A stretch of 48,245 bases of DNA, taken from contig NZ_AUWQ01000020.1 in assembly GCF_000455205.1 (NCBI RefSeq), positions 1 to 48,245 of the forward strand, read 5' to 3'. The stretch comes from Mycobacterium sp. UM_CSW. GTDB taxonomy: Bacteria; Actinomycetota; Actinomycetes; Mycobacteriales; Mycobacteriaceae. The position numbers and the translations under genes were made by a program. The notes under the pieces are model-generated. The model saw nothing but the letters and a program-made list of their open reading frames with translations, did no database searches and was not told the DNA's origin. This document shows positions 20,567-26,193 of this stretch, in pieces; the stretch's first letter is position 1; the number at the start of each line of letters is the position of its first letter.

Positions 20567-21370
20567 GTGACAGAAAAGCCGTCGTCATATTTGGTGTTGG
20601 CTTCCCAGCGCAGCGGCAGCACCCTGCTGGTCGAATCGCTGCGCGCGACCGGCGTAGCCGGCGAGCCGCAAGAGTTCTTTCAATACCTGCAAACCACCAG
20701 CCAAGCCCCGCAGCCGCGGGAGTGGTTCGCCGATGTGGACGACGCGTCGATCCTGAGCCTGCTCGATCCGCTCGACGAGGGGAAGCCGGACCTCGCGCCG
20801 GCCGAGGTCTGGCGCGACTACATCCGCACCGTCGGGCGAACCCCGAACGGCGTGTGGGGCGGCAAGCTGATGTGGAACCAGACACCGCTGCTGTTGAGCC
20901 GCGCCAAAGACCTCCCCGATCGGTCGGGCGACGGCCTGCGGGCAGCGATCCGCGACGTGATCGGCGAGGAACCCCTTTACGCGCACGTTTACCGGCCCGA
21001 TGTGATCTCCCAAGCCGTGTCGTTCTGGCGGGCGGTGCAGACGCGGGTGTGGCGCGGGAGGCCCGATCCGGTCCGCGACGCGCGCGCCACCTATCACGCT
21101 GGGGCGATCGCCCACGTCGTCACCATGTTGCGCGCCCAGGAGGAGGGCTGGCGAAACTGGTTCGCCGAAGAGGATATAAAACCCATGGAGATTCCATATC
21201 CGGTCTTGTGGCGCAACCTGACTCAGGTCGTGGGCACCATCCTCGATGAACTGGGTCTCGATCCCCGATTGGCTCCGCAGCCGGTGCTGGAGCGCCAGGC
21301 CGACCAACGCTCCGACGAGTGGGTGGACCGATATCGTGCGGATGCCGAGCGAGAGGGGCTACCGACATGA
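20567..21370 (+). CDS. stf0: Trehalose 2-sulfotransferase Stf0
   Basis: Transfers sulfate from PAPS to the 2-position of trehalose, giving trehalose-2-sulfate, the committed step to sulfolipid-1 type glycolipids. The 267-residue protein matches the M. smegmatis/M. tuberculosis enzyme block by block: YLVLASQRSGSTLLVESLRA (PAPS 5'-phosphosulfate loop), TGVAGEPQEFFQYL, TPNGVWGGKLMWNQT (trehalose-binding strand-swap region), RPDVISQAVSFWRAVQT and LERQADQRSDEWVDRYR. GTG at 20567 gives the family length; a TTG one codon earlier is the longer alternative. In H37Rv stf0 (Rv0295c) is elsewhere. Here its stop overlaps the cysD start by four bases, so PAPS supply and use are translationally coupled. Confidence 0.95.
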   Translation: MTEKPSSYLVLASQRSGSTLLVESLRATGVAGEPQEFFQYLQTTSQAPQPREWFADVDDASILSLLDPLDEGKPDLAPAEVWRDYIRTVGRTPNGVWGGKLMWNQTPLLLSRAKDLPDRSGDGLRAAIRDVIGEEPLYAHVYRPDVISQAVSFWRAVQTRVWRGRPDPVRDARATYHAGAIAHVVTMLRAQEEGWRNWFAEEDIKPMEIPYPVLWRNLTQVVGTILDELGLDPRLAPQPVLERQADQRSDEWVDRYRADAEREGLPT

Positions 21371-22284
21371 CCGCAGCGACCGAGACACGCCAAGTCGACG
21401 AATTGCGGCTGCTGGAAGCCGAAGCGGTGCACATCATCCGCGAGGTCGTCGCGGAGCTGGAGCGCCCCGTCCTGCTGTTTTCGGCGGGCAAGGACTCGAT
21501 CGTACTGCTTCGGTTGGCGGAGAAGGCCTTTCGGCCGCTGCCGTTGCCGTTTCCGGTGCTGCACGTCGACACCGGCCACAACTTCCCCGAGGTGATCGAG
21601 TTCCGTGACCGCCGGGTCACCGGCCACGGGCACAAGCTGATCGTCGCCTCGGTGCAGGAATCAATCGACAACGGCCGAGTGCCCGACCCGGGCCCCGGCG
21701 CCTCGCGCAATCGGGCCCAAACCCGCACGCTGCTGGACGCCTTGGAGGCCGGCGGCTTCGACGCGGCCTTCGGCGGCGCGCGCCGCGACGAGGAACGCGC
21801 CCGCGCCAAGGAACGCATCCTGAGCTTCCGCGACGAGTTCGGCCAGTGGGATCCCCGCGCGCAGCGCCCCGAGCCGTGGTCGCTCTACAACGGGCGGATC
21901 AAGAAGGGCGAGCAGGTCCGGGTGTTCCCGCTGAGCAACTGGACCGAGCTCGACGTGTGGCGCTACATCGAGCTGGAAGGCCTTGAGATACCGTCGATTT
22001 ACTACGCCCACGAGCGCGAGGTGTTCGAGCGCGACGGCATCCTGCTGGCGGTCTCGGAGTACGCCAGGCCGCAAAACGGCGAGACCGCGGCAACCGAGTG
22101 GGTGCGCTACCGCACGGTCGGCGACCTCACCATCACCGGGGCAGTCAGGTCCCGGGCCACCGACATCACCCGGGTCATCACTGAGATCTCCGCGGCCACC
22201 GTCTCCGAGCGCGGCGAGACCCGCGCGGACGACCGCACCTCGGCGGCCGCGATGGAGGACCGCAAGCGAGAGGGCTACTTCTGA
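21367..22284 (+). CDS. cysD: Sulfate adenylyltransferase small subunit CysD
   Basis: ATP-PPi exchange subunit that, driven by GTP hydrolysis in CysN, makes APS from sulfate and ATP. The 305-residue protein has the PP-loop FSAGKDSIVLLRLAEKAF (residues 38-55), HVDTGHNFPEVIEFRD, FDAAFGGARRDEERARAKER, FGQWDPRAQRPEPWSLYNGR and the C-terminal MEDRKREGYF. From memory it is shorter and clearly diverged from M. tuberculosis CysD (Rv1285), so it may be a second, dedicated copy rather than the assimilatory one. ATG at 21367 overlaps the stf0 stop; its TGA overlaps the cysNC ATG by one base. Confidence 0.94.
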   Translation: MTAATETRQVDELRLLEAEAVHIIREVVAELERPVLLFSAGKDSIVLLRLAEKAFRPLPLPFPVLHVDTGHNFPEVIEFRDRRVTGHGHKLIVASVQESIDNGRVPDPGPGASRNRAQTRTLLDALEAGGFDAAFGGARRDEERARAKERILSFRDEFGQWDPRAQRPEPWSLYNGRIKKGEQVRVFPLSNWTELDVWRYIELEGLEIPSIYYAHEREVFERDGILLAVSEYARPQNGETAATEWVRYRTVGDLTITGAVRSRATDITRVITEISAATVSERGETRADDRTSAAAMEDRKREGYF

Positions 22285-25519: not shown

Positions 25520-25548
25520 CGGATACCCGGGCGGTAACCTGGCCCGCA

Positions 25549-26193
25549 ATGTGGATCACCATCTTGGTGATGGCCGTCGCCGTCAGCCTCGAACCCTTCC
25601 GGGTCGGCATGACGGTGCTGATGTTGAACCGGCCACGGCCGATCCTGCAGCTGCTGGCGTTCCTCTGCGGCGGCTTCGCGATGGGCATGAGCGTGGGCCT
25701 GGTCGTGCTGTTCGTCTTGCGGCGCAGGCTGCTGTGGTCGACATATCTCACGCTGCCGAGGGTGCAGATCTGCATCGGCGTGCTGGCGCTGTTGGCCGCG
25801 GCCGCCGTCGTCCTGACCCGCAACCGGGTGGCCGTTCCGGAAACGGTGGCGACGCGCGCGCAGCGGCTGGTGACCGGGCGATCGCTGTGGGTGGCGGGCG
25901 CGGCCGGCCTCGGAATCGCGCTGCCGTCGGTCGACTATCTGGCCGCGCTGGCCGTCATCCTGGCGTCGGGTGCGGCGGCCGCCACGCAGGTCGGCGCGCT
26001 GCTGATGTTCAACGCCGTGGCCTTCGCCCTGGTGGAGATTCCCCTGGTGGTCTACCTGTTGGCGCCCCAAGCGACGCGCGACTCGATGGCGGCGCTGCAC
26101 AACTGGATCCGATCGCGCCGACGCATCCAGGTCACCGCCCTGCTGGCCGCGGTCGGGTGCATCCTGATGGCGGTCGGCCTAGCCGGTATCTGA
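25549..26193 (+). CDS. GAP/Sap-family membrane protein (sulfolipid-addressing protein-like)
   Basis: A 214-residue protein with six hydrophobic segments: SLEPFRVGMTVLMLNRPRP followed by LLAFLCGGFAMGMSVGLVVL is typical of the GAP family (Pfam Sap, sulfolipid-1-addressing protein). Members help move surface glycolipids across the mycobacterial inner membrane: Gap for glycopeptidolipids, Sap (Rv3821) for sulfolipid-1 in M. tuberculosis. Location at the end of a stf0-cysD-cysNC series fits a role with a sulfated trehalose product. ATG at 25549 is 29 bp after the YeiH stop; the ribosome-binding site is weak. It converges with the permease gene, with 35 bp between stops. Confidence 0.83.
   Translation: MWITILVMAVAVSLEPFRVGMTVLMLNRPRPILQLLAFLCGGFAMGMSVGLVVLFVLRRRLLWSTYLTLPRVQICIGVLALLAAAAVVLTRNRVAVPETVATRAQRLVTGRSLWVAGAAGLGIALPSVDYLAALAVILASGAAAATQVGALLMFNAVAFALVEIPLVVYLLAPQATRDSMAALHNWIRSRRRIQVTALLAAVGCILMAVGLAGI

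What the first reader, a model, noticed from the sequence alone, without database searches (positions are those of the whole stretch)
20567..26193. Trehalose-sulfation locus occupying the position of the M. tuberculosis polyacyltrehalose genes
stf0, cysD and cysNC overlap by 1-4 bases and are followed by a small membrane peptide, a YeiH-type exporter and a GAP/Sap-like protein. In H37Rv (from memory) the interval between dapC (Rv1178) and pruC (Rv1186c) carries pks3/4, papA3, mmpL10, chp2 and fadD21 for acylated trehaloses. Here the same interval carries sulfation of trehalose instead. One site may be used in different species for alternative trehalose glycolipids, and this gene set could make and export a sulfated trehalose product outside the known SL-1 locus.
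Basis: partly seen in the sequence, partly recalled or inferred. Interest (0 to 1): 0.85.

Follow-up and report, generated by a model that had tools for sequence, protein, structure and literature searches.

The report
Trehalose-sulfate operon in shared mycobacterial island
This stretch looks built to make trehalose-2-sulfate with its own supply of activated sulfate, and relatives show that it is not a replacement for the acyl-trehalose lipid genes known from the same place but sits beside them in several species, so the two may be halves of one older, variable locus.

Summary
The genes are as described: stf0-cysD-cysNC (overlaps of 4 and 1 bases), a 45-aa membrane peptide, a PF03601 (YeiH-like) transporter and a Sap-family protein, between pruC and dapC. 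The three enzymes pass curated cut-offs, so PAPS supply plus trehalose 2-sulfation is well supported. 'Instead of PAT' fails as a rule: in five genomes (G143, G195, M. rhizamassiliense, M. numidiamassiliense, M. simulans) stf0-cysD-cysNC and a PAT-type set (Pks, PapA, MmpL, Chp) lie together at this site; G195 also has FadD21 and Sap there. In many other genomes (fast growers, inferred) pruC and dapC nearly touch. I read the site as a mosaic island in which sulfation and acylation genes are kept or lost separately. The window keeps the sulfation half; its sapL, beside chp in 12 of 14 acyl loci read, looks like a leftover of the acyl half. Its nearest relatives on the tree lack cysD-cysNC at the site, and a breakpoint inside stf0 suggests the window regained them. 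A conserved element before the peptide-transporter unit makes one transcript from stf0 to sapL unnecessary. Side finding: similar small peptides precede 8 of 23 remote transporter relatives. No product was measured.

The parts
20567..21370 (+). stf0, trehalose 2-sulfotransferase (an in-frame TTG lies one codon upstream at 20564)
   Evidence: NF047724 455/400 bits, PF09037 361 bits, 1TEX E 1e-150
21367..22284 (+). cysD, ATP sulfurylase small subunit of the sulfation-linked sulfate-activating complex
   Evidence: TIGR02039 427/396.6; second copy in the genome, on C12, 65% identical
22284..24194 (+). cysNC, ATP sulfurylase GTPase fused to APS kinase (PAPS producer)
   Evidence: NF004035 783/715, APS_kinase 208 bits
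20916..24195 (.). inferred imported (recombined) tract: 3' half of stf0 plus cysD-cysNC; ends approximate
   Evidence: window and L007 differ at 8 of the first 353 bases of stf0 and 63 of the last 451; 0 of 5000 permutations as extreme; L007 has no cysD-cysNC
24192..24218 (+). conserved non-coding element (consensus by eye CTARATTCAGCGCGAGCCAATCRCTTGG), putative operator/promoter part of the peptide-transporter unit
   Evidence: a 23-base core with up to 3 substitutions, 57 hits in 57 of 224 sequences held; none in 100 shuffles of the window; one exact copy in the genome, two more at 3 mismatches against 1 for the backward control
24250..24387 (+). 45-aa peptide with one hydrophobic stretch, partner candidate of the transporter
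   Evidence: conserved C-terminal half upstream of yeiH in 50 of 51 distinct loci; no Pfam or NCBIfam family at E 0.01
24392..25519 (+). PF03601 (YeiH-like) membrane transporter, substrate unknown
   Evidence: 304 bits; TIGR00698 122 bits, under cut-off 232.6; no solved relative at E 1
25549..26193 (+). sapL, Sap/GAP-family membrane protein (PF11139); possibly the leftover border gene of the acyl module
   Evidence: 202/35 bits; sapL lies beside CHP in 12 of 14 acyl loci read
   Evidence: synteny in relatives; family models only weakly matched
26229..28574 (-). large permease ORF (APC-type by eye), part of the insert next to dapC
   Evidence: no curated match supports the name
28612..29841 (-). 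dapC, right border of the site
   Evidence: TIGR03539 598/355.7

Best explanation
stf0-cysD-cysNC is a dedicated trehalose-2-sulfate operon: CysD-CysN makes APS, the CysC domain makes PAPS, and Stf0 moves the sulfate onto trehalose (families shown, steps inferred). It occurs across the genus. In the window's part of the genus it lies in a variable island between pruC and dapC, together with a peptide-transporter unit that seems separately controlled (cargo sulfate or sulfated sugar: a guess) and, in some species, with a PAT-type acyl module that has sapL at its edge. The window has the sulfation half and sapL without the acyl enzymes, most likely because the acyl module was lost. Its cysD-cysNC were probably lost in the lineage and regained by homologous recombination. 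Expected product here: trehalose-2-sulfate, free or acylated by enzymes encoded elsewhere (the genome has TPP-like and LOS-like loci). Expected product in combined-locus species: possibly a sulfated acyltrehalose.
For: Curated cut-offs passed for Stf0, CysD, CysNC. Match ends of stf0 and this cysD type lie within 500 bases in 53 of the 56 genomes that have the cysD type, within 6 bases or overlapping in 23 (148 genomes searched). Both modules at one site: G195 pruC-stf0-cysD-cysNC-peptide-yeiH-fadD21-sapL-CHP-MMPL-PAPA-PKS-apc-dapC; G143, L015, L017, G023. Families of acyl genes: PKS 3512 and 3528 bits against 2400 for the Pks2 model (G143, G242), FadD21 1144 and 1187 against 1100 (G195, G357), PapA Condensation, MmpL and PE-PPE-type Chp by Pfam. 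sapL beside CHP in 12 of 14 acyl loci, five of them not shown at this site. In L011, L012, L016, L019 and L025 the stop of stf0 is the TAA that ends cysNC in the window. Recombination signal. A second cysD-cysNC with an APS kinase domain on C12.
Against: No acyl remnant was found between pruC and dapC in the window, so loss of the acyl module here rests on synteny and sapL alone. The acyl trait is in 7 of 66 scored taxa (three of them added although their stretch was partial) with 5 changes on the tree, which separate gains could also give. FadD21 is absent from the site in G143, L017 and L015, and yeiH and sapL from it in G023. Several acyl models are not met: Chp of G143 358 against 580, MmpL of G143 841 against 874.7 (877.4 in G195), FadD21 of M. 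simulans (ORF start cut) 1041 against 1100. The combined locus is rare: Chp reached E 1e-110 in 30 of 396 genomes. The tree is a quick one with 21 of 79 inner branches weak, built from the flanking genes themselves. For the regain: only window-L007 was permuted, and L013-L007 also diverge more in the 3' part (0.126 against 0.079), though far less than window-L007 (0.140 against 0.023); L007, L009 and L056 keep spacers of differing length where cysD-cysNC would be, so the scars are not all alike. No product, transcript or cargo is known.
Confidence: 0.7

Rival explanations
1. One reading: the interval is one slot filled in each species either by trehalose sulfation or by PAT genes, as alternatives.
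For: 14 of 85 resolved intervals carry stf0-cysD-cysNC, 13 of them (all but G143) without Pks, PapA, MmpL or Chp; G357 carries the PAT-type set without stf0 at the site.
Against: 5 of the 8 genomes whose acyl set is tied to this site also hold stf0-cysD-cysNC there.
Confidence: 0.07
2. stf0-cysD-cysNC and the acyl module arrived at this site separately and more than once, and only look like halves of an older whole; the window never had the acyl genes.
For: Acyl trait scattered on the tree (7 of 66, 5 changes); some genomes carry the acyl set far from this site (for example G055, G196, G073, G368); recombination moves pieces of this site; FadD21 and sapL vary.
Against: Same order and orientation of MMPL-PAPA-PKS against CHP at the same place in rows far apart on the tree; sapL kept beside yeiH in genomes that lack CHP there.
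Confidence: 0.27
3. The operon is a sulfur-economy device (free trehalose-2-sulfate as solute or sulfur store, the transporter removing excess sulfate) with no link to envelope lipids.
For: 12 of the 80 named loci have stf0 beside cysD with neither pruC nor dapC in the stretch, and 11 of these show no acyl genes there (L028, M. simulans, does); the wider transporter family is annotated as putative sulfate export (cut-off not met).
Against: At this site it repeatedly sits beside acyltrehalose-type genes and Sap; Stf0 initiates SL-1 synthesis in M. tuberculosis (title of a reference seen in PMC3141025).
Confidence: 0.3

Closest known systems
Stf0 (solved as 1TEX, from M. smegmatis as I recall; Rv0295c in M. 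tuberculosis, recalled)
   Same: Same family over the whole length, above the curated cut-off
   Different: Here overlapping its own cysD-cysNC and placed between pruC and dapC; in M. tuberculosis stf0 lies elsewhere (recalled)
DAT/PAT locus of M. tuberculosis (pks3/4, papA3, mmpL10, chp2, fadD21; PMC4183827 passages)
   Same: Same chromosomal site (recalled for H37Rv); in G195, G143, M. simulans and others a module of the same families lies beside stf0
   Different: The window lacks all five genes; relatives add sapL and the sulfation genes
SL-1 locus of M. tuberculosis (PapA1, PapA2, Chp1, MmpL8, Sap; PMC6463170 passages; pks2 and fadD23 recalled)
   Same: Similar logic (trehalose-2-sulfate, acylation, Chp, MmpL, Sap); the PKS of combined loci passes the Pks2 model
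   Different: Combined loci here show one PapA, a FadD21-type ligase where one is present, and sulfation genes in the same place
cysDNC sulfate-activating complex of M. tuberculosis (PMC3141025 passages)
   Same: Same enzymes
   Different: Second, sulfation-linked copy; the other copy is on contig C12

Membership tests
Trehalose 2-sulfotransferase (Stf0) | Full-length match above curated cut-off | tested here: met
   NF047724 455 against 400, residues 8-268 to 1-261 of 261
Trehalose 2-sulfotransferase (Stf0) | Sulfates trehalose at O2 | not testable with these tools
   needs an assay
CysD-CysNC sulfate-activating complex | CysD plus CysN fused to APS kinase, above cut-offs | tested here: met
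   427/396.6 and 783/715
YeiH putative sulfate exporter (TIGR00698) | Score above 232.6 | tested here: not met
   122 bits; only the wider PF03601 is met
Sap / GAP-like (PF11139) | Score above 35 | tested here: met
   202 bits
M. tuberculosis-type DAT/PAT locus | pks, papA, mmpL, chp and fadD21 between pruC and dapC | tested here: not met
   no such genes in the window interval; the set is there in G357
SL-1 locus | Pks2, PapA1, PapA2, MmpL8, Chp1 and Sap genes in one cluster | tested here: not met
   window interval has only a Sap-family gene; other Pks/PapA loci of the genome look LOS-like and TPP-like
Combined sulfation plus PAT-type locus (described here) | stf0-cysD-cysNC and Pks-PapA-MmpL-Chp in one pruC-dapC interval | tested here: not met
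   window has the first half and sapL only; met end to end in G143 and G195; for M. rhizamassiliense and M. numidiamassiliense the two sides were read as separate stretches of one contig; for M. simulans no pruC was found within 59 kb

The most novel reading that the evidence does not exclude
Some non-tuberculous mycobacteria carry a complete sulfated-acyltrehalose pathway in one locus (own PAPS synthesis, Stf0, FadD21, Pks, PapA, Chp, MmpL, Sap, plus a transporter with a micro-subunit). The separate PAT and stf0 loci of M. tuberculosis, and the sulfation-only locus of the window, are what remains after this whole was broken up and reshuffled by recombination; so sulfolipid-like molecules would be made outside the tubercle bacilli.
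Probability: 0.35. Interest if true: 0.8.

Novelty: new variant of a known kind. Interest (0 to 1): 0.6.

Why it matters
Passages seen call acylated trehaloses M. tuberculosis-restricted (PMC11361433, which itself reports a putative PAT-type locus in M. spongiae) and SL-1 unique to pathogenic mycobacteria (PMC4818103). stf0, PAPS supply and a PAT-type acyl set side by side in named non-tuberculous species give a direct test of whether sulfolipid-like molecules are older than the tubercle bacilli, and a picture of how the site was taken apart. The window itself looks like a natural case of loss and regain of the PAPS genes of a trehalose-sulfation operon.

Tried and rejected
Alternative-occupancy reading: rejected. 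PAT locus in decay with remnants: none of Pks, PapA, MmpL, Chp, FadD21 hits the pruC-dapC interval at E 1 (weak hits to Chp and FadD21 lie elsewhere in the window, and CYSC hits the CysC part of cysNC). stf0-linked cysNC as only PAPS source: rejected, the C12 copy also reads as having an APS kinase domain (translation; not scanned with a model). C23 and C7 of the same genome as an SL-1 locus: not favoured, C23 looks LOS-like (2093-aa Pks, PapA, glycosyltransferases, MmpL) and C7 TPP-like (TPP gene content recalled). RNA element: no Rfam match at E 0.1 in 17000-30100. PapA2 against PapA3 type: the only close solved relative is PapA2, so undecided. Second Stf0-like gene on C69: distant paralogue (pieces 31-49% identical; read). 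Literature: searches listed no paper whose title or abstract start describes the combined locus; six papers were seen as passages, the rest as listings; the library lacks most subscription journals. Structure prediction was not used.

Selection and dropped rows: of the 143 other genomes with a dapC match I read the interval in 100, the best-scoring ones less G091 (contig end); 43 were not read, so the sample leans towards the window's side of the genus. 15 of the 100 could not be resolved. Named loci: best 80 of 316. In the tree 10 named rows equal to G rows were dropped, and G329 was left out for lack of columns. Three TPP-like loci (G265, G247, G048 C65) were left out of the sapL count.
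Full report
Observation. stf0 passes NCBI's trehalose 2-sulfotransferase model (455 bits, cut-off 400) and its only solved relative is 1TEX. cysD and cysNC pass their models. The transporter is PF03601 but is under the YeiH cut-off. The Sap-family call is firm (202 bits, cut-off 35). The genome (G000, 6.39 Mb in 186 contigs) has one full stf0 and two cysD; the second cysD-cysNC, on C12, also ends in what reads as an APS kinase domain (translation). So the stf0-linked pair is a second PAPS source, tied to the sulfotransferase.

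How common the operon is. In 148 genomes of the genus, stf0 is found in 108 at E 1e-60 and this cysD type in 56 at E 1e-150. In 53 of these 56 the matches are within 500 bases of each other (not in G060, G066, G116). Among the 80 named stf0 loci kept of 316 found, 35 have cysD beside stf0: 23 with pruC or dapC in the stretch and 12 without. The operon is therefore widespread in the genus and not special to this site.

The site. dapC was found in 144 of 148 genomes. I took the interval side of dapC from 100 of the 143 others, the best-scoring ones (13 extended). 85 could be read through to pruC or, where pruC was missing, rocA; 15 could not. Of the 85, 49 hold none of the markers; in 26 of these dapC and pruC are at most 1.6 kb apart, an almost empty site, while the other 23 are longer, up to 17 kb, with genes that I did not name. 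Those I put in the tree fall outside the main body of stf0-bearing intervals; that they are mostly fast growers is my inference. 21 hold stf0, 14 of them with cysD-cysNC; 9 hold a sat-cysC pair, another route to PAPS, with 2 changes on the tree. I call the site a mosaic island.

Sulfation and acylation together. A Chp-type gene like that of G143 reached E 1e-110 in 30 of 396 genomes. In 8 I could tie it to at least one border of this site: G143, G195 and G357 (both borders), G242 (M. rhizamassiliense, L017) and G244 (M. numidiamassiliense, L015), each read from both sides, G023 (M. simulans, L028; dapC side only, no pruC within 59 kb), G329 and G048 (pruC side only). Of the other 22, 8 have it far from pruC or dapC on the same contig (G247, G368, G055, G196, G016, G069, G073, G075), 9 on a different contig, which does not place it, and 5 were not placed. 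The matches of G handles to named species rest on equal contig lengths and coordinates. In 5 of the 8 (G143, G195, G242, G244, G023) stf0-cysD-cysNC lies in the same run. In G195 pruC and dapC are about 25 kb apart with everything between; the PKS there was read across two stretches and its integrity not checked. FadD21 is at the site in G195 and G023, not in G143, G242 or G244. Families of the acyl genes were checked by Pfam and NCBIfam: PKS passes the Pks2 model, FadD21 its cut-off in G195 and G357; Chp of G143 and MmpL of G143 stay under theirs, and the M. simulans FadD21 ORF, cut at its start, scores 1041 against 1100. This refutes 'sulfation instead of PAT' as a rule. G357 shows the PAT-type order without stf0 at the site; its stf0 (75% identical) is elsewhere.

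What the window is. sapL lies beside Chp in 12 of 14 acyl loci read (not in G023 and G368; three TPP-like loci left out), including G055, G196 and G073, far from this site, and G152 and G296, on other contigs than pruC. In the window sapL is present and the acyl genes are not. I read it as the border gene left after loss of the acyl module; this is inference. That the window never had the module stays open.

Loss and regain of the PAPS genes. L008 and L020, a little further out, do have the pair. In L011, L012, L016, L019 and L025 the stop codon of stf0 is the TAA that ends cysNC in the window, as after a clean deletion (TAG in L013); L007, L009 and L056 have other, longer junctions. Window and L007 differ at 8 of the first 353 bases of stf0 but 63 of the last 451 (maximum chi-square 30.7; 0 of 5000 permutations as large). 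L007-L009 show no such step (0.088 and 0.078), L056-L007 little (0.116 and 0.129), L013-L007 a smaller one (0.079 and 0.126). Identity to L007 is 91-97% before, 84-90% in the last part of stf0, and 93-98% after cysNC. The simplest account is homologous import of the 3' half of stf0 with cysD-cysNC. The donor is not identified; the best match seen, L008, is 82-95% identical over the tract.

Separate control of the transporter unit. A 27-base element sits just before the 45-aa peptide. Its 23-base core, with up to 3 substitutions, was found once in each of 57 of the 224 sequences held (some are two copies of one genome); those I placed lie just upstream of the peptide and yeiH, whether stf0, cysNC or a PPE gene comes before. 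It is absent from 100 shuffles of the window and has one exact copy in the genome. A -10-like stretch and a GTG start follow at once, as for a leaderless transcript (reading of the sequence, not tested). I therefore doubt that one transcript from stf0 to sapL is needed.

Literature. PMC4183827, PMC3141025, PMC11361433, PMC6463170, PMC13095810 and PMC4818103 were seen as passages only. PMC4183827 gives the DAT/PAT gene roles, PMC6463170 the role of Sap with MmpL8, PMC3141025 the PAPS branch. PMC11361433 already reports a putative PAT-type locus outside M. tuberculosis (M. spongiae), and PMC13095810 a gene annotated papA2 in M. nivoides, so acyl sets outside tubercle bacilli are not new as such. 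None of the passages describes stf0 with cysDNC at the PAT site, and the searches named under Tried and rejected listed no such paper. H37Rv gene order and the place of Rv0295c are recalled.

Verdict. Observation confirmed; interpretation right on the likely chemistry, wrong on exclusivity. Trehalose-2-sulfate as product: about 0.85. Combined ancestral locus with loss of the acyl half: about 0.6-0.7. Regain of cysD-cysNC: about 0.75. No product was measured.

Noticed in passing
window 24250-24387; L244-L251: The 45-aa peptide before yeiH (core DWWATLLAGVIVALAVA..LPKIPW) is found in 50 of 51 distinct yeiH loci of the genus held. Small ORFs of the same kind (core EDWAATVVGLVLLAL..GVIPTGLVP) precede 8 of the 23 remote PF03601 loci among the 30 best returned from 246 genomes of the class (found by pattern and eye). 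It may be an undescribed small subunit of this transporter type.
   Followed up: partly
L095, L106, L125, L212 and others: A different PAPS route at the same site: sat (PF01747) plus stand-alone cysC, beside FadD21 and, in some, a Pks, a Sulfotransfer_1 gene or (G048) Chp; in these four genomes stf0 is on another contig.
   Followed up: partly
G000 C69:23507-24259 (L208): A distant Stf0-like sulfotransferase beside a serine/threonine kinase gene.
   Followed up: no
G000 C23:8738-40000 and C7:50000-70000: LOS-like and TPP-like loci (Pks, PapA, MmpL, FadD, with glycosyltransferases on C23 and a Chp-type gene on C7) in the same genome; possible sources of acyl groups for trehalose.
   Followed up: partly
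L094, L109, L113, L126, L130: A roughly 940-aa ResIII-type helicase gene lies directly after dapC in these five loci.
   Followed up: no
window 17954-20515: Between pruC and stf0: a PE-family gene, a protein with a SHOCT-like end (just under its cut-off) and two small secreted-looking proteins (one DUF6636, just under its cut-off); of the 80 named loci the last three were seen only in L007, L009 and L013 at half coverage or more.
   Followed up: no
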